Shown here in pieces: positions 7,501 to 20,588 of a DNA stretch of 20,628 bases. The DNA comes from a virus. The stretch covers positions 1 through 20,628 of IMG/VR virus record IMGVR_UViG_3300046006_001381. One strand, 5' to 3'. The position numbers and the translations under genes were made by a program. The notes beneath the pieces are model-generated. The model made no database searches and was not told where the DNA came from. It saw only the letters and a list, made by a program, of their open reading frames with translations. Position 1 is the stretch's first letter. The number at the start of each line of letters is the position of its first letter.

Positions 7501-8598
7501 AGATGTAGCCCAGCCGGTAGACGCCCAATAAAGTGCAGTAGAGTTCCAATAAACTGTTTTTGCCGCAGCAAACGATATACCTGAGTTATTGGTACCATCT
7601 CCAAGGTTTGTACCCGACCAAGGACTTGACGCTCCAGCAGCAATAATATCGCAAAAATCAACATCTGTTATTGTTGATACATTTGCCGCGGATATAGTTC
7701 TTTGCACCCCCGTAATGTTGGAAGCTACCACTATTCTATAATTTGCGGTGGTAGCCGCACCAAAAGTTAGCGTGCCGGTTACAGTTAAATCCTGTTCAAG
7801 TTTTAGTTCACTAGTTGAACCGTTAGATTCAGAAGGTCGAGAAATAGTAAAATTGTTACAAGTAATCGGCCCCGACGAAATAGTACAATATATATTGGCG
7901 GTACCAGCACTAACTAGTCGTGTTAAATTATAAAAAGTTAATCCTGTAGTTGGTAATGTAAAACTAAAATTACTAAAAGAAAAATTAATTGTTGAAGTTC
8001 CAGCATCAAAAGTTAAATTTGTTGCGGAATTTATAGAAAAACCAACGCCAGTGCATGTAACTGTAGAACTTCGTAAATTAATACTACGAACTGAAGTGGT
8101 TCCTGAAAAAAATGTCGTTAGTGTTAGCGCATATCCCGCAGTGTCAAAAGCTCCAGCACTAAAAGCTGTAAGCTGTCCCGCTGTTGGCAGCGTAAGGGCG
8201 CTACCTAATGTCCATCCGCCAGTGGCGTTATTAAAAGACATTTGGCTACTAATTGGCACCCCATTAGTTGTAATAGTGCGACCAGTCGTTGAGGAGTTAA
8301 ATGTTATACCCCCGGTGGTTGTCCAGACTGTGCCCGCAAGTAAAGTAAAAGACCCGCTAATAGCAAAAGTAGGGGATGTGCCATTTACAAAGCTAACCGT
8401 ACCTGCGGATACGGTCAAGTCGAGGCAAGTCAGTGCGCCGGTACAGGTAACAGTGTAAGTTCCTGCTTGGTCAAAAAATACATCATCCGCAGCCGTAGGT
8501 ACAGATGCGCCAGCACCGCCGCCCGGCGAAGTTGACCAGTTAGTAGTGCTGGTGGTATTCCATGTTCCAGACCCACCAACCCAATAGCGATTAGCCAT
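4549..8598 (-). CDS. Giant repeat-containing tail fibre / adhesin
   Basis: A 1349-aa Thr/Ser/Gly-rich protein predicted to be beta-helical or beta-solenoid. It opens RYWVGGSGTWN..NWSTSPGGG..PTAADDVFFD (residues 4-43), and a diverged second copy of this YW...W...SGG...P.A.D...FD pattern occurs at about 349-386. A solenoid module with T-x-T-NG-x and GGT/W-x-L..AL recurs at about 104-186, 651-730 and 847-907, two copies carrying FAATSGTKTI or FAATSGIKTI. Residues 976-1315 are seventeen tandem 20-residue repeats led by ETAT/ETST-type motifs. The C-terminus ends FLWTRIDDSQDPNWIPV, a possible tip or trimer cap. GGAG precedes the ATG. The gene core is much more AT-rich than its surroundings. It is most likely a receptor-binding fibre or head/tail appendage; the target is unknown. 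Confidence 0.75.
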   Translation of the reverse strand: MANRYWVGGSGTWNTTSTTNWSTSPGGGAGASVPTAADDVFFDQAGTYTVTCTGALTCLDLTVSAGTVSFVNGTSPTFAISGSFTLLAGTVWTTTGGITFNSSTTGRTITTNGVPISSQMSFNNATGGWTLGSALTLPTAGQLTAFSAGAFDTAGYALTLTTFFSGTTSVRSINLRSSTVTCTGVGFSINSATNLTFDAGTSTINFSFSNFSFTLPTTGLTFYNLTRLVSAGTANIYCTISSGPITCNNFTISRPSESNGSTSELKLEQDLTVTGTLTFGAATTANYRIVVASNITGVQRTISAANVSTITDVDFCDIIAAGASSPWSGTNLGDGTNNSGISFAAAKTVYWNSTALYWASTGWATSSGGVPANANFPLAQDTAVFDNTGSTPAVMTIFGDYLLPTINIQRTSAFQLDTSGSSILARVYGNITLQAATTLGRSGTNFTIAANGKSTTITQNSGTILGNITVNCGTGTFALSANITITPSVGAGTLFVNSGTFSLSGYVLSAGGINFNGNSNAGYGTAIIAFGSSYLEATGVGTIFQGAFAGKACTITGTPLIICTNSSATARTISTDAPTEANSVSFRITAGTGTLTFTGFCRDLDFTDGVNPTGFAGTLSNNGLTAYGNFKASTGMTFAAGPAAMSFAATSGTKTIDTAGVTLDFPLTFNGVGGTFQLVSALTSGATRLCTLTNGTLDLNGYTLTTGSFGSSNSNVRTLAFGTSNIVVTGVNTSIFTASSVTNLTITGVPVVDCTGTTGTSGQTRNFSIGAFSESQAINVNINPGTSAVDIFRLGFTSGSFKNVVFSNTFTGTVQVLNTIFIYGNLNLGGVTAITGSSEITFAATSGIKTIRTNGQTFSTGVTFSGLGGTWEMQDALAISGTLSFANGTLRLKAGTTNTVGAFVTSGTVRKYLESTVPGTQATISDASGTNAASYLSVQDSNATGGATWTALFSSNNVYAGNNTGWLFNVLYTRAVIETASATETNVPQRRISRAITETATQTDVTNRAAFFTGSISEAASGTDSVGATGTLKGAITETASGVDTPSATREGGVNIAEQATSTDLVASKAEFYSNVAETATETDTTNRVLIVSTNIAETATETDSVVPSLRMTRAIAETSTGTDSVVPSLRINRSITETATGTQTNNVQMSAAATIAETSTGTDIVDRGLFVTGNIAETATQTDSITPQYRFAGPISETTSVTLVQSSGFNLVAFVAETSTGTDTIGPSLSISRAISETATQTDTVVPSLRMTRAVTETATGTDAVVPSLRMTRAVTETATATQTNTGLYTAAPTVTETTLASDSNNGVRTTATSVTETTDVTDSPESNFLWTRIDDSQDPNWIPVNNS
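4654..5673 (-). repeat. Seventeen tandem 60-bp (20-residue) repeats in the fibre C-terminus
   Basis: Translated units all measure exactly 20 residues and begin V/I-A/T/S-E-T; for example ITETATQTDVTNRAAFFTGS and IAETATETDSVVPSLRMTRA. Glu at position 3 is invariant in all units, Thr at 4 is nearly so, and Asp/Glu/Gln is usual at 9, while positions 10-19 vary widely. An eighteenth partial unit runs into the C-terminus. At DNA level the array is diverged, but gcgcgggtcatacgcagact is identical at 4775-4794, 4835-4854 and 5255-5274, and 40 bases are identical between 4755-4794 and 4815-4854, a sign of recent duplication. The array lies inside a reading frame and has no spacers, so it is not CRISPR. 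Confidence 0.95.
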
Positions 8599-8773: not shown

Positions 8774-9289
8774 TTAACCGGCCAAGCTGAGCGTGTAAGT
8801 CACGTTCAAAATATCGCCGGTGATAACGCTACGGTCGCCAGACGTAAAGTCAGCGGCGGAGAACAAGACACCAGTGGTGCCGCTCTTGGTGTTGTTGCTG
8901 GTCAAGAACGCGCCACCAACGGTAGCGGATGCGTTGATGTTGAACACGGCAGGGGAAGCCGAGTTGGTCACAACGGATGGGTTTGCAGCGGTAGCGGAAG
9001 GGAAAGTTGCCGTAACGCGGGTAGCGTTGGAGTAAGGTACGATCTCTACCCAGCCAGCGTGCGAAGCCATGGTGTCGCCAGCGGCGGGGGTGTTACTTGC
9101 ACCGGCACCGTACAAACCGACGTACCAAGTGGTGATTTGGGCTACGCCAGCCAAAGTGGAGCCAGCCATCTGTTGCAGGCCAACGTTCACCACCAAGTTG
9201 CTTTCTTCAGCGCTCCATTTCAGGACGCCTTGGTAGTCGTAGCAATCAATTTTAAAACGGCCTGTAGCGCGAGCGATGTTATCAGTCAT
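8774..9289 (-). CDS. Phage virion protein with N-terminal IDCYD / WYVGLYG motifs
   Basis: A 171-aa beta-rich protein. It starts ARATGRFKIDCYDYQGVLKW and continues with SNLVVNVGLQQMAG and TTWYVGLYGAGAS, followed by an NSATRVTATF-like strand region and a C-terminal ITGDILNVTYTLSLAG. The N..V...GL.......WYVGL signature belongs to a group of small phage structural proteins I have seen next to tail-fibre genes, usually annotated only as hypothetical or structural. AAAGG lies about 6 bases before the ATG. The final strands (TSGDRSVITGDILNVTYTLSL) resemble the edge of an immunoglobulin-like sandwich. It may be a fibre adaptor or a decoration protein; the role is not resolved. Confidence 0.65.
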   Translation of the reverse strand: MTDNIARATGRFKIDCYDYQGVLKWSAEESNLVVNVGLQQMAGSTLAGVAQITTWYVGLYGAGASNTPAAGDTMASHAGWVEIVPYSNATRVTATFPSATAANPSVVTNSASPAVFNINASATVGGAFLTSNNTKSGTTGVLFSAADFTSGDRSVITGDILNVTYTLSLAG

Positions 9290-9299
9290 GATTAACCTT

Positions 9300-9716
9300 T
9301 CAGTTTGAAGAACGAATCAACGCCGCCGTTGAAGTGTTGGCGGGCATTGTAACAAGGAACGTAGTTGCGGAGGTTTTGTCCGCGCCAAAATCCAGCACAG
9401 CAACCGACTTGTTGCCTTGGGTTACGTTATAAATCAAGGCGCAACGCGCTGTCAAGCGTGCGCTCCAACTTACATTATCCCAGTTGGCGTATGCCACTGA
9501 GCCGGAACTGTTGATCGTAACGCCGGTCATTACTTGACCCCCGGCTGTATAGCCTGCCGCTACAACTTCATTAGCGCTGGAGTACGCCGTGGTATCTGCG
9601 TTTAACTCGGCAAAAGATGTGTACAGGGCAATTTTGATCGTGTCGGTAGACAAGTCGTGGATACCCTGATACAACTCTTTTTTGAAGCTGGTGGTTTGGG
9701 TCTGTACGATGCTCAT
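9300..9716 (-). CDS. Small phage tail/virion structural protein
   Basis: A 138-aa protein. The N-terminus TSFKKELYQGIHDLSTDTIK leads into IALYTSFAELNADTTAYSS and ANEVVAAGYTAGGQVMTGV, then a beta-rich half with NWDNVSWSA, RCALIYN and AVLDFGADKTSA. The phrases IKIALYT and V.A.GYTAGG are typical of a family found in many tailed phages in the tail or fibre region; I know no experimental function. It overlaps the adaptor gene stop by ATGA (9713-9716), so it is probably translated together with that gene, and a TAGGA site lies upstream. It could be a tail-knob or fibre-connecting protein. Confidence 0.65.
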   Translation of the reverse strand: MSIVQTQTTSFKKELYQGIHDLSTDTIKIALYTSFAELNADTTAYSSANEVVAAGYTAGGQVMTGVTINSSGSVAYANWDNVSWSARLTARCALIYNVTQGNKSVAVLDFGADKTSATTFLVTMPANTSTAALIRSSN

Positions 9717-10369
9717 GAGACGGGTATCCTAACTTGACCATCGCGGTACGCATCCATACGCTGTTTGCCATCGCCCAAGTTCTTGAGCAGCCCAAGCGCC
9801 TGTACATACATCGTCTGGTACAGTTGCACCATATCGGCTTCACCCTTCATGTACGTGACGGCTTCACACATCGTACCGTACAGCAGCGCTGAATCAAAGT
9901 TGTCACCCAGCCAAGTGTTGCCAGCGACCACAATAGACTCTGGATAGTAGTAATAGTGCAGTTCCGCGCCATACGCAGCATTGGGTGTTGGGCCAATAAT
10001 CAAAGACAGTTCTGTGGTATTCGTGTATTGCGGGCCAAAGATAGCGTAGTGTTTTGGCTTGCCCGTCGTTGCGGGATTTGGATAGGCTTCACGTATGAAG
10101 TTCACATCCTTATTGAGCAGGTACAAATATTCACCACCACCGCCCGTTGGGTAGATCGCCAATGAGTACACCGACAAAAAATCATCAGGGCAAGACAAGT
10201 AAGGGTTGTTTGCGCTAAGATTACCTATCACGTTTTTACGCAAATTGGCAATTTGAACAGTGTTGTATATACGCTGTTCAGCCTGCTTGATAAACGTGTT
10301 CATATCATCTGTGGGAAACGAGTTCTCACAGTAGTTACTCACCATCGTGACAAGTTCAGTGTATGTCAT
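9713..10369 (-). CDS. Head-tail adaptor protein (SU10-adaptor-like)
   Basis: A 218-aa mainly helical protein with a beta insertion. It begins MTYTELVTMVSNYCENSFPT followed by DDMNTFIKQAEQRIYNTVQI, then LRKNVIGNL, YLSCPDDFLSVYSLAI, KPKHYAIFGP and a C-terminal helical half (GDNFDSALLYGTMCEAVTYM, MVQLYQTMYVQALGLLKNLG). This matches my memory of the phage adaptor family named after phage SU10, which sits between portal and nozzle in short-tailed phages. The start overlaps the stop of the 88-aa gene by ATGA. Together with the gp4-like gene at 11222-11932 this gives two connector-type proteins in one operon. The family call rests on motifs only. Confidence 0.65.
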   Translation of the reverse strand: MTYTELVTMVSNYCENSFPTDDMNTFIKQAEQRIYNTVQIANLRKNVIGNLSANNPYLSCPDDFLSVYSLAIYPTGGGGEYLYLLNKDVNFIREAYPNPATTGKPKHYAIFGPQYTNTTELSLIIGPTPNAAYGAELHYYYYPESIVVAGNTWLGDNFDSALLYGTMCEAVTYMKGEADMVQLYQTMYVQALGLLKNLGDGKQRMDAYRDGQVRIPVS

Positions 10370-10632
10370 GCCATTGGGCCTCGGGACATGGTGCCCTTAG
10401 TAGCTGCACCGGTGCCGCGCATCTTGATGCCGCTAGTTTTTGTGGGTTCGTTACCCGCAGACTTGCTTATTCTGCCAATGGTTGCATCAACCGAATCAAG
10501 TTTGCTATGGTTAGGCCCGGAACCGGGGTTCTCGACCACGGTAGAAGACTTACCACTCATAGTGTGGGGTTTGGCGTAAGTGCTGGCGGGGCCAACTTCT
10601 TTACCCATCATTTTCTTGCTAAATGTAGCCAT
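10366..10632 (-). CDS. 88-aa basic protein ending in RGTGAATKG motif, function unknown
   Basis: A low-complexity Ser/Lys/Gly-rich protein: MATFSKKMMGKEVGPASTYA, a Thr/Ser/Asn-rich centre (VVENPGSGPNHSKLDSVDAT), and the end TSGIKMRGTGAATKGTMSRG-PMA. The last 20 residues are the most family-like part; I have seen near-identical C-termini in phages from freshwater data sets. The motif RGTGAATKGTMSRG is a looser relative of the RxDGxAxKGxTKG motif in three other small genes here. It has no membrane segment or enzyme motif. It sits 2 bases after the 62-aa gene and overlaps the adaptor start by ATGA, so it belongs to the connector operon. It may be a virion-internal or assembly protein. Confidence 0.65.
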   Translation of the reverse strand: MATFSKKMMGKEVGPASTYAKPHTMSGKSSTVVENPGSGPNHSKLDSVDATIGRISKSAGNEPTKTSGIKMRGTGAATKGTMSRGPMA

Positions 10633-10634
10633 GT

Positions 10635-10823
10635 TTAGCCCCGTTTCTGGTTGGCAACTTTGGCCAGACCACGACCCATTGATTTCATATCGGCATCGGT
10701 CTTGCCGCCTTTTTTACCCTTGCCACCATGTTGAACGCCAATTGTGGGGCCGCTGTCGCCAAGATTTTTGCCCTTGGTCTTGCCTTTTTGGGCAACGCCG
10801 TCTGCTGCTCGTGTGAATGCCAT
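10635..10823 (-). CDS. 62-aa highly basic Gly/Lys-rich protein with DGVAQKGKTKG motif
   Basis: The protein starts MAFTRAADGVAQKGKTKGKN, then LGDSGPTIGVQHGGKGKKGG, and finishes KTDADMKSMGRGLAKVANQK-RG. Here the KGKTKG motif lies at the N-terminus (residues 5-21), whereas in the 64-aa and 101-aa genes it lies near the C-terminus. The ending MGRGLAKVANQ is a short helix. A strong GGAG lies 8 bases before the ATG, within the spacer after the zinc-ribbon gene. Its high Lys/Gly content and lack of hydrophobic core suggest a disordered nucleic-acid- or acidic-surface-binding protein, which is inference. Confidence 0.65.
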   Translation of the reverse strand: MAFTRAADGVAQKGKTKGKNLGDSGPTIGVQHGGKGKKGGKTDADMKSMGRGLAKVANQKRG

Positions 10824-10832
10824 GATTAACTC

Positions 10833-11222
10833 CTATGAAACGGATACCGTTACTGTACCAACAAATGTTGTTGCCACCAAATTATTTGGAGTCAACGCTG
10901 CATCAAACCCTACCGCCATCCCTACAGGGTTCCAGCCCCATTGGATGTCTCGACTGCCGCTACCAATAGAACCCGTCGTGGTTGTGCCCGACTGGTAGTA
11001 CGTATTGTCATTCCGTGGGTTCCGTAGCGCTTGCGGGTCATCCACAGGGTACATACCCAGTTGCAGTTGCGGTTGATCTGGTTCCCAACATTCACGACAG
11101 ACCAATATATTGACCTGCTTCGTTTTGACGATTAGCGTGCGCAAATCGCGCAGGCGAAATCGAAATCCACAACGGTCGCAGATTGCAATCGCAATCTTGC
11201 CGGAGGCAAAACGGTTTCCCAT
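10833..11222 (-). CDS. Zinc-ribbon virion or assembly protein
   Basis: A 129-aa protein with an N-terminal four-cysteine ribbon: CDRC (Cys15, Cys18) and CREC (Cys42, Cys45), separated by a basic segment FRFRLRDLRTLIVKTKQ. It is followed by a conserved-looking PVDDPQALRNPRNDNTYY (about 58-75). The C-terminal third (WNPVGMAVGFDAALTPNNLV to the end) is a Thr/Val-rich beta segment. The ribbon-plus-DDPQALRNPR layout recurs in phages between head-tail adaptor genes. Its start shares one base with the gp4-like stop (TGATG), implying translational coupling. The C-terminal beta part looks added on and could anchor it to the connector. The metal and the partner are not proven. Confidence 0.65.
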   Translation of the reverse strand: MGNRFASGKIAIAICDRCGFRFRLRDLRTLIVKTKQVNILVCRECWEPDQPQLQLGMYPVDDPQALRNPRNDNTYYQSGTTTTGSIGSGSRDIQWGWNPVGMAVGFDAALTPNNLVATTFVGTVTVSVS

Positions 11223-11932
11223 CAGCCACCCCCAATATAGGAGCGACGCGGTACAAACCGAATTGCTGCCTTTTCTCGATCCTCACCGGCTGCCAAGTCA
11301 AACTGCTCGTCGTACGCGGCTTTAAGCATCGGGATACGCTGAGACAGTTCAGGCACTTTCATGGAAATGTGATACGCCAAACCGGCTGTCAATGCGGGTA
11401 AAAAGCGGAAGCTGACATCAGGGGTTTCTACACCAGAGCCTGCATCCTGAATACGGCGCATGCGCCAGTACCTAAACACGTAGTATGGGTTCTCTACAGT
11501 GCCTTGGTCAGGGGTTGGCCAGACAGTGATCTTGGGGTTATCCTCAAGTCGCTGAATCCAAACTTGGATAGGACGTGCCTGCTGTAACTTGTTTGGGATC
11601 GTAGCGTACGTGGACACGCTGATTCGCGTGATTGAGAGGTCAGCCTGCGTAGACACATTACCCGCGCCCGTGCGAATCACGTGCTCTAACAAGTCAATGG
11701 TGTCCGCAGGGAGATCGTATGTGTTGACGCCCTGTACGAGGTTGACATACCCCTCGTCGATTGTCCACATGTTGATACCACGGTTTTGCCACTCGATGGT
11801 CATCAGGTTCATTGACCGACGCGCAGTGCGCAAGTCATAACCCGAACGCATTTCCCGACCCGCACGCTCCCATGCTTCCTCGGCAATCTCCGTGAAGTCA
11901 AGGTTAAAAGCGTAGGTGCCGGTGGTGGTCAT
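11222..11932 (-). CDS. Head-tail adaptor, gp4-like / tail tubular protein A-like (probable)
   Basis: A 236-aa protein. The N-terminal helices FTEIAEEAWERAGREMRSGY and LRTARRSMNLMTIEWQNRG lead into INMWTIDEGYVNL, a strand segment VNTYDLPADTIDLLEHVIR, then ITRISVSTYATIPNKLQQAR and a C-terminal helical region (LTAGLAYHISMKVPELSQR, MLKAAYDEQFDLAAGEDREK). This arrangement is shared by phage connector proteins that sit beneath the portal (P22 gp4, T7 gp11 and many uncultured relatives). A GGAG lies 6 bases before the ATG and the stop shares a base with the next start. The family role is established in P22 and T7; its application here is inferred from motifs and gene order. Confidence 0.65.
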   Translation of the reverse strand: MTTTGTYAFNLDFTEIAEEAWERAGREMRSGYDLRTARRSMNLMTIEWQNRGINMWTIDEGYVNLVQGVNTYDLPADTIDLLEHVIRTGAGNVSTQADLSITRISVSTYATIPNKLQQARPIQVWIQRLEDNPKITVWPTPDQGTVENPYYVFRYWRMRRIQDAGSGVETPDVSFRFLPALTAGLAYHISMKVPELSQRIPMLKAAYDEQFDLAAGEDREKAAIRFVPRRSYIGGG

Positions 11933-11935
11933 GGT

Positions 11936-12190
11936 TTACTCCACTGTGGGGGTATCTTCAACTACCGGAGCAGGCTCTTCAACTACCGGAGCAGGCTCTT
12001 CAACTACCGGAGCAGGCTCTTCAACTACCGGAGCAGGCTCTTCGGCGGGCATTTGAACCACTGGATCGGGGGCCAAAAGATACGTGACTTCATCAATCAA
12101 AAGTTGAACTTCGGGGTCAATATGCCCCAATGCAGTCATTTGAGTGGCTGCGGCCATTTTGGCGCATGACAGGATAGTAATGAGGTTCAT
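11936..12190 (-). CDS. 84-aa protein with acidic Pro-rich repeat tail
   Basis: The N-terminal half (MNLITILSCAKMAAATQMTA, then LGHIDPEVQLLIDEVTYLLA) is helical. From about residue 49 it becomes a run of EEPAPVV units ending VVEDTPTVE. The tail is made by four perfect 21-bp repeats and is strongly acidic, in contrast with the basic small proteins next to it. It has no signal peptide or obvious enzyme motif. The ribosome-binding site is weak and the start follows the 77-aa gene's stop by two bases. The rod-like Pro/Glu tail could be a spacer or a docking arm for a basic partner; this is speculation. The gp4-like gene starts 3 bases downstream. Confidence 0.65.
   Translation of the reverse strand: MNLITILSCAKMAAATQMTALGHIDPEVQLLIDEVTYLLAPDPVVQMPAEEPAPVVEEPAPVVEEPAPVVEEPAPVVEDTPTVE
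11956..12039 (-). repeat. Four perfect 21-bp tandem repeats encoding EEPAPVV
   Basis: On the plus strand cttcaactaccggagcaggc plus t (21 bases) occurs at 11956-11976, 11977-11997, 11998-12018 and 12019-12039 with no mismatch, and a 4-base start of a fifth unit follows. The period is a multiple of three, so copy changes keep the frame. Perfect identity points to recent expansion by slippage or recombination. Confidence 0.97.
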
Positions 12191-12192
12191 GA

Positions 12193-12426
12193 TTATTTCT
12201 TTGCGGTTTTTGCAGAGTCAATAAATGCCTGCGCGGTAGGCGCACCTTTTTGCCCGGGTTTGCGCATTTTAGCCCCACGAGCACGTTTTGCGTTGATGTT
12301 GGCGTACAGGCCAACTTTTCCACCCGCGGCGTACTCGGTGAAGTCCGTGTTGTCACGGCGCTTTTTCACCTTGGCTTTGGGCATTTTGTCTGGGTTGATA
12401 GCGCCCATGCCGCGACTGGCTTTCAT
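12193..12426 (-). CDS. 77-aa basic protein with GLYANINAKR motif, function unknown
   Basis: I choose the ATG at 12426, one base after the stop of the 101-aa gene. The frame is open upstream to 12501, but that extension would lie wholly inside the 101-aa gene. The protein starts MKASRGMGAINPDKMPKAKV, then KKRRDNTDFTEYAAGGKVGL, YANINAKRARGAKMRKPGQK and ends GAPTAQAFIDSAKTAKK. Both MKASRGMGAINPDKMP and the GGKVGLYANINAKR-x-RGAKMRKPG stretch look familiar from other aquatic phages, where they are uncharacterised. The protein is very basic with no membrane segment. A GGGAAG lies upstream. It belongs to the small-protein run between the large virion gene and the connector genes. Confidence 0.65.
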   Translation of the reverse strand: MKASRGMGAINPDKMPKAKVKKRRDNTDFTEYAAGGKVGLYANINAKRARGAKMRKPGQKGAPTAQAFIDSAKTAKK

Positions 12427-12427
12427 A

Positions 12428-12733
12428 TCAGCACTTCCCGCCGCCAGCCATCTTGATTTGAGCGCCCTTGGTTTTGCCCTTTGTAGCAATGCCGTCAGCA
12501 CGCTTAGAGGCAGAACCCACGGAACCGCCTTTCTTCATACCGGGCATCATAGATTCGTCAGGGGGCACGCCACGAGGTTTGGGAGCCATAGGCATCATGG
12601 GCTTCTTGGGCATGGGCTTCTTGGGCATAGGCCGTTTCATCGGGGGCTTTGGAGCCGAGCCACCGTCGATGTCTTGGGGCACTTGCATGCCCTCGCGGAA
12701 GATACCACCGTCGTTAAATTTACGTTTTTTCAT
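12428..12733 (-). CDS. 101-aa Lys/Pro/Met-rich protein with KGKTKG motif and Gly-Gly-Lys-Cys end
   Basis: The N-terminus is MKKRKFNDGGIFREGMQVPQ. A Pro/Lys/Met repeat follows (RPMPKKPMPKKPMMPMAPKP, about 34-53), then KKGGSVGSASKRADGIATKG (67-86) and the end KTKGAQIKMAGGGKC. The last 35 residues parallel those of the 64-aa protein encoded just upstream, so the two probably arose by duplication of this module. AAGGAG lies 6 bases before the ATG and includes the TAA of the preceding gene, the best ribosome-binding site of the cluster. The protein is strongly basic and presumably disordered. No function is known to me. Confidence 0.7.
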   Translation of the reverse strand: MKKRKFNDGGIFREGMQVPQDIDGGSAPKPPMKRPMPKKPMPKKPMMPMAPKPRGVPPDESMMPGMKKGGSVGSASKRADGIATKGKTKGAQIKMAGGGKC

Positions 12734-12742
12734 GTTGACTCC

Positions 12743-12937
12743 TTAACATTTACCGCCGCCAGCCATGGCAATCATCTTGCCCTTGGTATGACCCTTGGCC
12801 ACACAACCATCACCGCGAGTGACACTGCCACCCTTGGCCAACTTGGTCATAGGCTTGCCTTTGTGCAAACGGCCTTCGTGTTTGTTCACGGCCTTCTGCA
12901 TCATGGCTTTGTCCATCTTGACATCTTCATGTTTCAT
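12743..12937 (-). CDS. 64-aa basic protein with KGHTKG motif and Gly-Gly-Lys-Cys end
   Basis: The protein begins MKHEDVKMDKAMMQKAVNKH and EGRLHKGKPMTKL (a short helix), then AKGGSVTRGDGCVAKGHTKG and KMIAMAGGGKC. Residues 36-64 align with the C-terminus of the 101-aa neighbour (GGSV, DG, KG-x-TKG, MAGGGKC). It has two cysteines, at 45 and the last residue. The start overlaps the 80-aa gene by 11 bases, with AAGGGG about 7 bases before the ATG; an internal Met at residue 8 is an alternative start. It has no membrane segment. Confidence 0.65.
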   Translation of the reverse strand: MKHEDVKMDKAMMQKAVNKHEGRLHKGKPMTKLAKGGSVTRGDGCVAKGHTKGKMIAMAGGGKC

Positions 12938-13169
12938 ATTTAGCCCCTTTCAGATTGTCGATCTTCCGTTCAATACGGTCAAACCTGTCAAGCAATTGCT
13001 GCATGTCTGCACGAAATTCCGTACGGGTAATGTGGTCACGAGCAACTTCTTCACGAGTACGGTTAAGCAAAATGCTCAACCGATCCAACTCGTTGAACTT
13101 ACCCTTGAGTAAAAAGCCCATGAGCGCAACAATTGCGCTAAGGGCTACGTTCCAGAGCATCATTTCCAT
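12927..13169 (-). CDS. 80-aa membrane-anchored coiled-coil protein
   Basis: A hydrophobic helix (about residues 5-22, LWNVALSAIVALMGFLLKG) is followed by a long charged coiled coil (FNELDRLSILLNRTREEVAR, then FRADMQQLLDRFDRIERKID to residue about 73). The plan is the same as the 89-aa lysis-cassette protein, but the sequences are not obviously related. XhlA-type or holin-accessory proteins look like this; so do virion ejection or membrane-docking factors, and its place among structural genes leaves both open. The start is one base after the stop of the 84-aa gene (TGACATG), and the 3' end overlaps the next gene by 11 bases. Confidence 0.65.
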   Translation of the reverse strand: MEMMLWNVALSAIVALMGFLLKGKFNELDRLSILLNRTREEVARDHITRTEFRADMQQLLDRFDRIERKIDNLKGAKYET

Positions 13170-13170
13170 G

Positions 13171-13425
13171 TCAGCACTTCCACCTTGCGAGGGAAGCCGC
13201 CTTGCGGGTGGGCTTGCCCTTCTCGTCTTTCATTGGGCCCGGCATACCGCTCATGCGTGCGCAGAACGAGTCCTTACGCTTGCCGCCTTGGGGCTGGGGG
13301 GCTTTGAGGTTGCTACCGGTCGCAGCGTTGTACTTAGCGCGGCCTTTGGCGGTTAAACCCGCCCCCTTGGAAGCAGGCAGCTTTTCACCACGACCGATTG
13401 CAAGGGAGGGGGTTTTCTTAGCCAT
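13171..13425 (-). CDS. DUF6321-like small basic phage protein
   Basis: An 84-aa protein. The order KGAGLTAKGRAKYNAATGSN (about 20-39), LKAPQPQGGKRKDSFCARMS (40-59), GMPGPMKDEKGKPTRKAASL and the final ARWKC match my memory of the DUF6321 family, which occurs in phages of marine and freshwater bacteria and has no assigned function. It is very basic, with Cys55 in SFCARMSGM and a C-terminal Cys. The start lies one base past the stop of the 939-aa gene. Its ending resembles its neighbours in having Lys-Cys, and the last 11 bases of the gene (13171-13181) equal those of the 101-aa gene (12428-12438). Confidence 0.7.
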   Translation of the reverse strand: MAKKTPSLAIGRGEKLPASKGAGLTAKGRAKYNAATGSNLKAPQPQGGKRKDSFCARMSGMPGPMKDEKGKPTRKAASLARWKC

Positions 13426-16921: not shown

Positions 16922-17830
16922 TTAAGCGCCGGGAGAACCGAAGACACCCAGAGGATCAGACACGCCGAAGCTGTAACGCTCGCGGGACTTGTAACGGCTG
17001 TTGCCGGTGTCGAAGTCAGCATCCATACCATTTTGCAATGGGGTACGGACAAAGTGCTTCAAACCGTTTGGCACGTCAGTCATCAGGAACCAAGCGTTGT
17101 TGTCCGTCAGGTAGTGGTTAACGGTATAGCCTTCAGGAATCGAGCCGTTGTTTTTCAAGGCGTTGATGTCGTTGTCGGTTGTACCAACACGCAGGCTGGT
17201 TTCGAGCAAACGAGTAGCAACGAATTGCAAAGACGGAGGCACGATCAGTTTCTTAGGCTGAGCCGCAATCAACAGACCACGTTCGTCTGTCCAAGCAGCG
17301 ATTTGAATAACGGCGGCTTCCAAGGAAGTCTCGTTCAAATCGGCAGCGACAGTAGGACGGTTGCTGTTAACGTCGCCGTTCACCAGAGGGTGAGCAGTGC
17401 TGAACAAAGGTACGCCGTCACCATAAGTGACGCTGCCGTTAAAGCCGTTGTTCAAAACAGACGCGGCCTTGACTTGCTTGGTGTAAGCCATAGCGCGAGC
17501 CAGAGCTTTGACGTAGCGTGCAGACAGCGAGTCGTACAAGTTATCTTCGATAGCTTCTTCGGTCAACGAGAAGCCCATCGCAATGGTTTCGTGCACGTAA
17601 CGTGCAGTCCATGCTTCTTGGGCGTTATCGTATCGCAATGCTGAACCTTCGTTCTTGACAGGTGCAGCAGAGAAACCAGACAGCTTGGTTTCTTCTTCAA
17701 AGCTACGCTCCGAGGTTTCGGTTTCGTAGATTTCCTTGTGCTCTTCGCCGTACCGTTTGTACTCCAAACCAAACAAAGCGTTCAGTCCGGGGAGCAGTTC
17801 TTTAAGTAGTTGTGCGCGTGAAATTGCCAT
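16922..17830 (-). CDS. Major capsid protein, Mu gpT-like (HK97 fold expected)
   Basis: A 302-aa protein. It starts MAISRAQLLKELLPGLNALF, then GLEYKRYGEEHKEIYETETS and ERSFEEETKLSGFS, an N-arm rich in charge. The core has EAWTARYVHETIAMGFSLTE (72-91) and EEAIEDNLYDSLSARYVKAL, then MAYTKQVKAASVLNNGFNGS and DGVPLFSTAHPLVNG (138-152). IAAWTDERG, IVPPSLQFVATRLL and a C-terminal RYKSRERYSFGVSD follow. The order GFSLTEE..DD-like..LARA..YTK....VLN.GF...DG..L.S..HP is that of Mu gpT-type major head proteins. AAGGAG lies upstream and a strong terminator follows, consistent with heavy expression. No protease domain is fused and there is no obvious cleavage site. The scaffold candidate is three genes upstream. 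Confidence 0.85.
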   Translation of the reverse strand: MAISRAQLLKELLPGLNALFGLEYKRYGEEHKEIYETETSERSFEEETKLSGFSAAPVKNEGSALRYDNAQEAWTARYVHETIAMGFSLTEEAIEDNLYDSLSARYVKALARAMAYTKQVKAASVLNNGFNGSVTYGDGVPLFSTAHPLVNGDVNSNRPTVAADLNETSLEAAVIQIAAWTDERGLLIAAQPKKLIVPPSLQFVATRLLETSLRVGTTDNDINALKNNGSIPEGYTVNHYLTDNNAWFLMTDVPNGLKHFVRTPLQNGMDADFDTGNSRYKSRERYSFGVSDPLGVFGSPGA

Positions 17831-20207: not shown

Positions 20208-20588
20208 TTATGCGGCGCGAGAAACGCCGCGTGGATCAGAGACGACTGCTTCAATCGAGTCGTCGTTCATGATTCGGTATTCCACGCCATTTACGCTGAC
20301 ACGGGTTCCCGTGTACGACGCAAACACAACGTAGTCACCAACTTTGCACCATGGGCCATTTGGGAACCGTTCCTTGTCGGAATAGGCTTGTTCGCCCATA
20401 TCCAGAACCAGCCCCACTGTAGACATGATGCGCTCTTCACGCATTGTCTGTTTGGCTTTGATAATGCCCATCTCTCCGATGGTTTCTTCAATTTGCGGCA
20501 GTGCCACAAGCAACCGATACCCAACAGGACGTGGAAGCTGAGCTTCTACTTCTTCATCAGTTACGGCGGTTTCGACTTGATCAGTCAT
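20208..20588 (-). CDS. GroES-like co-chaperonin (phage-encoded)
   Basis: A 126-aa protein. After an acidic 16-residue extension it reads LPRPVGYRLLVALPQIEETI (about 18-37), then GIIKAKQTMREERIMSTVGL, VLDMGEQAYSDKERF, PWCKVGDYVVFASYTGTRVS and VNGVEYRIMNDDSIEAVVSD. The pattern P-x-GYRLLV..P, TVG-VLDMG, VGD-VVFASY-GT and V-x-G-x-EYRIMND-I-AVV follows Cpn10/GroES proteins; T4 gp31 is a known phage functional analogue used for capsid folding. The mobile-loop part is unlike bacterial GroES. No GroEL is present in the window, so it would work with host GroEL. It heads the visible head operon, just before the scaffold gene, with GGAAG upstream of the ATG. Confidence 0.8.
   Translation of the reverse strand: MTDQVETAVTDEEVEAQLPRPVGYRLLVALPQIEETIGEMGIIKAKQTMREERIMSTVGLVLDMGEQAYSDKERFPNGPWCKVGDYVVFASYTGTRVSVNGVEYRIMNDDSIEAVVSDPRGVSRAA

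What the first reader, a model, noticed from the sequence alone, without database searches (positions are those of the whole stretch)
10366..12937. Four small proteins share a RxDGxAxKGxTKG-type motif
RGDGCVAKGHTKGKMI (64 aa), RADGIATKGKTKGAQI (101 aa) and RAADGVAQKGKTKGKNL (62 aa) clearly match; RGTGAATKGTMSRGPM (88 aa) is a looser match. The motif sits near the C-terminus in three and at the N-terminus in one, so it moves as a module. All four proteins are small, Lys/Gly-rich and without a hydrophobic core, in a block that separates the large virion gene from the connector genes. It may bind DNA, a capsid surface or a common partner. I know no described function, so this is the best candidate for an undescribed system in the window.
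Basis: partly seen in the sequence, partly recalled or inferred. Interest (0 to 1): 0.65.

Follow-up and report, generated by a model that had tools for sequence, protein, structure and literature searches.

The report
Shared address tag on phage proteins
A widespread lineage of aquatic phages puts the same ~22-residue tail on many otherwise unrelated, fast-changing small proteins made beside the capsid genes; it looks like an address tag that sends them to one common phage partner, perhaps into the virus head, but the function is untested.

Summary
An HMM built without the window finds the 101-, 64- and 62-aa proteins at E 4e-13 to 7e-10; the 88-aa protein is only suggestive (E 0.87). The motif is a ~22-aa tag, GG[SK]V..SAS[KS]RADG[IC]A[QT][RK]GKTKG[RKT]M[VIL], found once per protein on 452 distinct proteins whose bodies fall into 127 BLAST clusters. 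Where MCP and adaptor genes are both on the locus, all 251 C-terminal-type tags lie between them, on the same strand, usually 2-6 genes in a row. The tag is under stronger purifying selection than the bodies, is not a DNA element, and is predicted disordered. Bodies turn over fast (5% shared at 80-90% MCP identity). Two C-terminal forms exist: a hydrophobic end (MV/FV/MI) or a GG-x-Cys tail. Tagless relatives often carry a variant tag, RGxGIARKGVRPAKMR. Best reading: a peptide address that recruits hypervariable basic proteins to a phage-encoded head partner, working like the T4 capsid-targeting sequence without membership of that family. Virion location is inferred, not shown.

The parts
12743..12937 (-). 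64-aa tagged protein (HKHE-type body + tag + AMAGGGKC tail)
   Evidence: ORF; leave-window-out HMM E 5.6e-10. In L006 the identical 64 residues are preceded by an SKKQ module
12770..12835 (-). tag in the 64-aa protein, residues 35-56
   Evidence: HMM alignment
12428..12733 (-). 101-aa tagged protein, N-terminal KKRKFNDGG, Pro/Lys-rich body, tag, C-terminal GGGKC
   Evidence: leave-window-out HMM E 3.7e-13; 288 candidate relatives in viral contigs
12455..12520 (-). tag in the 101-aa protein, residues 72-93
10635..10823 (-). 62-aa protein p62 with an N-terminal tag, ending MGRGLAKVANQKRG
   Evidence: leave-window-out HMM E 6.6e-10; orthologues at the same place in many relatives, alignment of 33
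10767..10811 (-). tag in p62, residues 5-19
10366..10632 (-). 88-aa protein p88; conserved C-terminal KTSGIKMRGTGAATKGxMxRGPMA (10369-10440)
   Evidence: family of 139 distinct ORFs; relation to the tag only suggestive
13171..13425 (-). DUF6321 small basic protein at the edge of the cassette; fused to a tag in some relatives (L204:1812-2132)
   Evidence: PF19846 E 6.9e-23
12927..13169 (-). 80-aa protein with a hydrophobic N-terminus, next to the tagged genes
12193..12426 (-). 77-aa basic protein with the phrog_16028 module (probable start ATG at 12426)
   Evidence: phrog_16028 E 1.3e-15; start read from the sequence
11936..12190 (-). 84-aa protein with VVEEPAP repeats, between cassette and adaptor
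   Evidence: no family
11222..11932 (-). SU10-type head-tail adaptor; one border of the tag cassette
   Evidence: PF24175 E 1.5e-10
16922..17830 (-). major capsid protein; other border of the tag cassette
   Evidence: tblastn to annotated capsid proteins of Pag-Yong1 (72%), HTVC023P (63%), DSL-LC04 (64%)

Best explanation
The motif is a short peptide address tag used by one lineage of aquatic phages (MCP relatives: Planktothrix Pag-Yong1, pelagiphages HTVC023P/027P, DSL-LC04). Each genome carries a small, rapidly changing set of very basic proteins encoded next to the capsid protein. All carry the same flexible peptide, nearly always C-terminal, after a Gly-Gly linker. The peptide most likely docks on a conserved phage-encoded partner of the prohead (capsid, scaffold or another core protein), so that whatever body is attached is carried into or onto the head, possibly for release into the host. 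Shown by computation: the tag, its modularity, its restriction to this lineage and locus, protein-level selection, body turnover and predicted disorder. Inferred: a partner, its identity, head location and delivery to the host.
For: 452 distinct proteins, one tag each (two ORFs excepted), on 127 BLAST body clusters. 251 of 251 non-p62 tags lie between MCP and adaptor, same strand, where both genes are seen; 197 of 198 tag loci hold core genes. In 21 environmental phage records of 24-67 kb searched whole, 20 carry tags, in one short cluster plus p62 and nowhere else. More than 600 viral stretches against 3 in genome contigs. pN/pS 0.28 in the tag versus 0.48 in bodies; 241 of 290 pairs have lower pN in the tag. 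Codons are free and no within-genome tag pair reaches 95% nucleotide identity, so the peptide is selected, not a DNA site. Tags of one genome resemble each other more than shuffled (0.719 vs 0.662, SD 0.011, 0/500), as a genome-specific partner would give. Tag pLDDT 43-54, disordered alone. All tagged proteins with a full core tag are net positive, median +13. The commonest tagged family's SKKQ module matches the N-terminus of PHROGs called 'virion structural protein, head and packaging' (E 6.5e-13). Precedent: the T4 CTS loads basic, poorly conserved internal proteins (PMC9026906, PMC7697877).
Against: No proteomics or structure shows any tagged protein in a virion. PHROG labels are annotations, not tests. 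Tag similarity tracks MCP only weakly (Spearman 0.18; 1 of 100 permutations as high) and no core gene stands out as partner. Within-genome similarity could reflect inheritance. Many bodies look low-complexity, and no enzyme or anti-defence domain was found, which weakens the idea of injected effectors. Some relatives with the same capsid lack the tag.
Confidence: 0.45

Rival explanations
1. The tag is a nucleic-acid-binding peptide: tagged proteins are histone-like or condensing proteins that coat packaged or replicating DNA, and the common partner is DNA.
For: Every tagged protein tested is net positive, median +13; the tag itself is Lys/Arg/Gly-rich.
Against: Invariant positions include Asp0, Gly+1, Gly+6 and Thr+8 with a hydrophobic +2 and +13, more specific than a charge-only contact. 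Hypervariable bodies with a single C-terminal copy suggest an address rather than many DNA contacts.
Confidence: 0.2
2. Tagged proteins sit on the outside of the head or at the neck (decoration), bound through the tag to MCP or cement protein, and vary because they face the environment or host surface.
For: The cassette follows the MCP, cement and a large virion-structural gene and ends at the adaptor.
Against: Bodies are mostly short, basic and Pro/Lys-rich without recognisable display or adhesion domains.
Confidence: 0.15
3. Tagged proteins are not virion parts but host-takeover or lysis-phase factors that share one host or phage target bound by the tag.
For: Hypervariable small phage proteins often act on hosts (own knowledge); the gene set changes fast.
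Against: The cassette is fixed between MCP and adaptor in 251/251 cases. The tag is nearly constant across a diverse lineage, including a genome recorded from Planktothrix, which favours a phage-encoded partner over a host one, though hosts of most records are unknown.
Confidence: 0.12
4. The conservation is nucleotide-level: a recombination site or ribosome-binding element that happens to be translated, letting gene bodies be exchanged.
For: In tags that end the gene, the Gly+10 codon is GGA/GGG in 112 of 210 against 5 of 135 in tags with a tail, so the tag end probably also carries the next gene's Shine-Dalgarno. Bodies are exchanged often.
Against: Synonymous codons are otherwise free; nucleotide identity between tags of one genome is 0.60, similar to amino-acid identity 0.61, none at 95% or more; pN/pS 0.28.
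Confidence: 0.04

Closest known systems
Phage T4 capsid targeting sequence (CTS) and internal proteins IPI-IPIII
   Same: A short peptide shared by several small basic head proteins whose bodies are poorly conserved between related phages; a CTS carries almost any attached protein into the head (PMC9026906, PMC7697877).
   Different: The T4 CTS is ~10 aa, N-terminal and removed by the prohead protease. This tag is ~22 aa, nearly always C-terminal, has no sequence similarity that I know of, no protease cut site was tested, and head entry is not shown.
Encapsulin cargo-loading peptides (from my own knowledge)
   Same: C-terminal targeting peptide behind a flexible linker that docks cargo on an HK97-fold shell.
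   Different: Cargo there is folded enzymes of a cellular compartment; no similarity was tested and no enzyme domain was found here.
DUF6321 (PF19846)
   Same: Small basic phage domain in the same block; fused to the tag in cluster 8 (L204:1812-2132).
   Different: A separate domain, spread over cyanophages and pelagiphages (521 records); the tag is not part of it.
phrog_22033 / phrog_25121 'virion structural protein'
   Same: Their N-termini match the SKKQ module of the commonest tagged family.
   Different: They are 845 and 263 aa; the match covers only residues 1-57/1-61 and not the tag.

Membership tests
T4-type CTS / internal protein system | Short targeting peptide shared by several otherwise diverse small basic proteins of one genome | tested here: met
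   2-6 tagged genes in most tagged loci, 127 body clusters, net positive; that the peptide targets anything is not tested
T4-type CTS / internal protein system | Peptide at the N-terminus, ~10 aa | tested here: not met
   Tag is ~22 aa and C-terminal, or 6-16 aa from the end, except in the p62 family
T4-type CTS / internal protein system | Peptide removed by a prohead protease | not tested
   No cut site examined; no protease identified in the window
T4-type CTS / internal protein system | Carries proteins into the head | not testable with these tools
   Needs virion proteomics or reporter packaging
DUF6321 (PF19846) | Match above Pfam gathering score | tested here: not met
   Tagged window proteins have no Pfam match above cut-off; only one of 115 representatives carries the domain
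RADG tag family (this work) | Leave-window-out HMM hit | tested here: met
   101, 64 and 62 aa: E 3.7e-13, 5.6e-10, 6.6e-10
RADG tag family (this work) | Leave-window-out HMM hit for the 88-aa protein | tested here: inconclusive
   E 0.87; profile-profile 3/200 shuffles as high; hhalign probability 14%
Known curated families | Tag described in Pfam, PHROGs, NCBIfam or PADLOC | tested here: not met
   115 representatives scanned; no family matched by more than one member; no PDB match to the tag profile

The most novel reading that the evidence does not exclude
An undescribed, portable, mostly C-terminal peptide code by which an abundant aquatic phage lineage loads a fast-evolving set of small proteins onto or into its head, in two chemical forms (hydrophobic end, or GG-x-Cys end), with a variant code (RGxGIARKGVRPAKMR) in marine-type relatives.
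Probability: 0.4. Interest if true: 0.82.

Novelty: new variant of a known kind. Interest (0 to 1): 0.66.

Why it matters
If right, it defines which unknown small proteins of a very abundant phage lineage belong together: anything with the tag is a candidate head-associated, possibly injected protein, even when its body has no relatives. [quoted passage not shown] The tag could also serve as a portable head-loading peptide for reporters in laboratory phage systems.

Tried and rejected
Chance or low complexity: rejected. DNA-level element: rejected except for the probable overlapping Shine-Dalgarno. Known domain: Pfam, PHROGs, PADLOC, NCBIfam and PDB gave nothing for the tag. Fold search: not run, because both AlphaFold models are low confidence (mean pLDDT 56 and 60). 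Naming the partner from co-variation with core genes: inconclusive. Tag in phages outside the lineage: a short pattern scan of HTVC010P and HTVC019P found none; tblastn with short variant tags, typed as consensus strings, found nothing, but low-complexity filtering makes that weak. Literature search for the motif strings, Pag-Yong1 and DUF6321: no relevant paper. The Patulibacter hit L244 was set aside as a probable chimeric contig end: the tag peptide follows an acyltransferase-like sequence without phage genes nearby. A first seed alignment (A1) held some sequences I had typed loosely; it was not used and was replaced by A2.

Full report
What was claimed. Four small proteins between 10366 and 12937 share a RxDGxAxKGxTKG motif that may move as a module. 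The ORFs are there, on the - strand. An HMM from 115 tag sequences that exclude the window and its near-identical loci finds three of them at E 3.7e-13, 5.6e-10 and 6.6e-10; the 88-aa protein is next at E 0.87. The first three are certain. The fourth is a conserved C-terminal tail of its own (RGTGAATKGxMxRGPMA) that resembles the tag only at the edge of significance.

What it is. The 101-aa protein has 288 candidate relatives in viral contigs. Among ORFs of 245 loci I found 452 distinct tagged proteins. All but a couple carry one copy. About half have the tag end 0-2 residues from the C-terminus, about a third 8-16 residues from it, and about a tenth (mainly the p62 family) carry it near the N-terminus. 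BLAST of the bodies without the tag gives 127 clusters; the largest has 124 members and about 90 are singletons. BLAST may split distant homologues, so 127 is an upper estimate. No family library recognises the bodies except DUF6321 in one cluster and an SKKQ-type N-terminal module in another.

Where it sits. The gene order is GroES-like, scaffold, two genes, MCP, cement, virion gene, DUF6321, an 80-aa gene, tagged genes, SU10-type adaptor, 129-aa gene, p62, p88, connector. In 120 loci with both MCP and adaptor, 98 carry tagged genes, 92 of them two to six, and all 251 non-p62 tags lie between the two genes on the same strand. Many loci were fetched by the tag or the adaptor with 8-10 kb flanks, so location elsewhere was tested separately: in 21 environmental records of 24-67 kb and Pag-Yong1 searched whole, tags form one short cluster plus p62. 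The records' completeness is not known. Of loci fetched by the adaptor with at least 3 kb upstream, 26 of 46 have tagged genes; 20 do not.

How it evolves. Pairs of loci whose MCPs are 80-90% identical share only 5% of tagged bodies outside the SKKQ cluster, rising to 44% at 90-95% and 79% at 95-99.5%. In the same 80-90% class the adaptor is always shared (by construction of the set), and the 129-aa and connector genes are shared in every pair where coverage allows the test. Meanwhile the tag has pN/pS 0.28 against 0.48 for bodies. Codons in the tag are free, nucleotide identity between tags of a genome is 0.60, and none of 321 pairs reaches 95%, so the peptide, not the DNA, is conserved and tags were not recently copied. 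One exception is informative: where the tag ends the gene, Gly+10 is GGA or GGG in 112 of 210 cases, against 5 of 135 when a tail follows, which fits a Shine-Dalgarno for the next gene.

Chemistry. Two C-terminal forms occur. In one the protein ends in the tag, usually MV, FV, MC, MI or ML. In the other a tail of 6-16 residues follows, and 130 of 155 such proteins end in Cys (or Cys plus a basic residue), usually GG-x-C, although 404 of 451 proteins have no Cys in their body. Both C-terminally tagged window proteins are of the Cys form. All 385 proteins with a full core tag are net positive, median +13. [FYM]xxGG occurs 1.59 times per protein before the tag against 0.16 in shuffled sequences, and a GG lies within 14 residues upstream of the tag in 392 of 405. 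AlphaFold gives pLDDT 43-54 over the tag and helical confidence only for the SKKQ module.

Relatives without the tag. Of 22 tagless loci with MCP and adaptor, 17 have one or more genes in the same interval ending in a variant such as KVRGAGIARKGVRPAKMR, RGYGMARGGKVCKMR or RGCGAVMENRRKKTLYT; shuffled sequences give 0.05 hits per pass. The pattern was drawn up after seeing some of these loci, so the count describes rather than tests. Profile comparison of the variant with the tag scores above all but 2 of 200 column shuffles. The cultured pelagiphage HTVC023P has three proteins ending RGVGAAIRGHKFIGVK, RGGGAAVRGMGFKGVF and KARGGGMARMKPTKMY, two of them outside the MCP-adaptor interval. These may be a wider family of tags; that is a hypothesis.

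Mechanism. A short, disordered, single-copy, C-terminal peptide with invariant Asp, Gly and Thr positions on many unrelated bodies is what an address tag looks like. That it stays nearly constant while bodies change, and that tags within a genome are more alike than shuffled (0.719 vs 0.662, 0/500), fits one phage-encoded partner per genome. The locus beside MCP and scaffold, and an SKKQ module also found at the N-terminus of proteins labelled virion structural, point to the head. I therefore favour head recruitment, with T4 CTS and internal proteins as the closest working analogue (PMC9026906, PMC7697877). The T4 definition is not met in position and length, and cleavage is untested, so I do not file it there. 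No experiment shows head location. Co-variation with core genes is weak and names no partner.

Context. MCP relatives include Pag-Yong1 (72%), DSL-LC04 (64%), HTVC027P (64%), HTVC023P (63%), Roseobacter CRP-901 (56%), Alcaligenes QDWS535 (47%) and Caulobacter RW (39%). Among the named records inspected, only Pag-Yong1 and the two records that share its hits carry the tag itself. The 37-F6 virus, whose capsid is 83% similar to that of HTVC027P (PMC9599517), has a reported hypervariable island at 9,000-9,700 in an unknown protein (PMC5490008). Whether that is the same slot I could not test.

Noticed in passing
window 12743-12937 and 12428-12733; 155 tail-class proteins in related loci: Tagged proteins with a tail end in GG-x-Cys in 130 of 155 cases, while 404 of 451 tagged proteins have no Cys in the body; a conserved terminal thiol of unknown use.
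   Followed up: partly
L114, L130, L134, L139, L156, L158, L161, L162 between MCP and adaptor: Marine-type relatives without the RADG tag carry variant C-terminal peptides (KVRGAGIARKGVRPAKMR, RGYGMARGGKVCKMR, RGCGAVMENRRKKTLYT), again on unrelated bodies.
   Followed up: partly
3' ends of C-terminal tags in related loci: The Gly+10 codon of the tag is biased to GGA/GGG when the tag ends the gene, as if it doubled as a Shine-Dalgarno for the next gene.
   Followed up: yes
window 10635-10823 and its homologues (L171, L184, L066 and others): p62 homologues keep the C-terminal GGKTNADMKSMGRGLAKVANQK module but swap the N-terminal tag for a KAVHKHEKxMHPGKPxTKxAKGG module, also seen in the 64-aa protein: several short modules are shuffled in this block.
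   Followed up: partly
records OQ594354.1, OL906435.1, PP438419.1: Three phage records named for Synechococcus, Planktothrix and Planktothricoides hosts have the same length (65,014) and the same hits; at least some host labels may be unreliable.
   Followed up: no
L244 (JALRCL010000652.1) near 8348-8422: Tag peptide at the end of an acyltransferase-like reading frame in a Patulibacter MAG contig, close to the contig end; probably a chimeric assembly.
   Followed up: partly
window 20208-20588: GroES-like co-chaperonin (PF00166) next to the scaffold and MCP, conserved through the lineage.
   Followed up: no
window 11936-12190: 84-aa protein with VVEEPAP repeats between the cassette and the adaptor; acidic, unlike its neighbours.
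   Followed up: no
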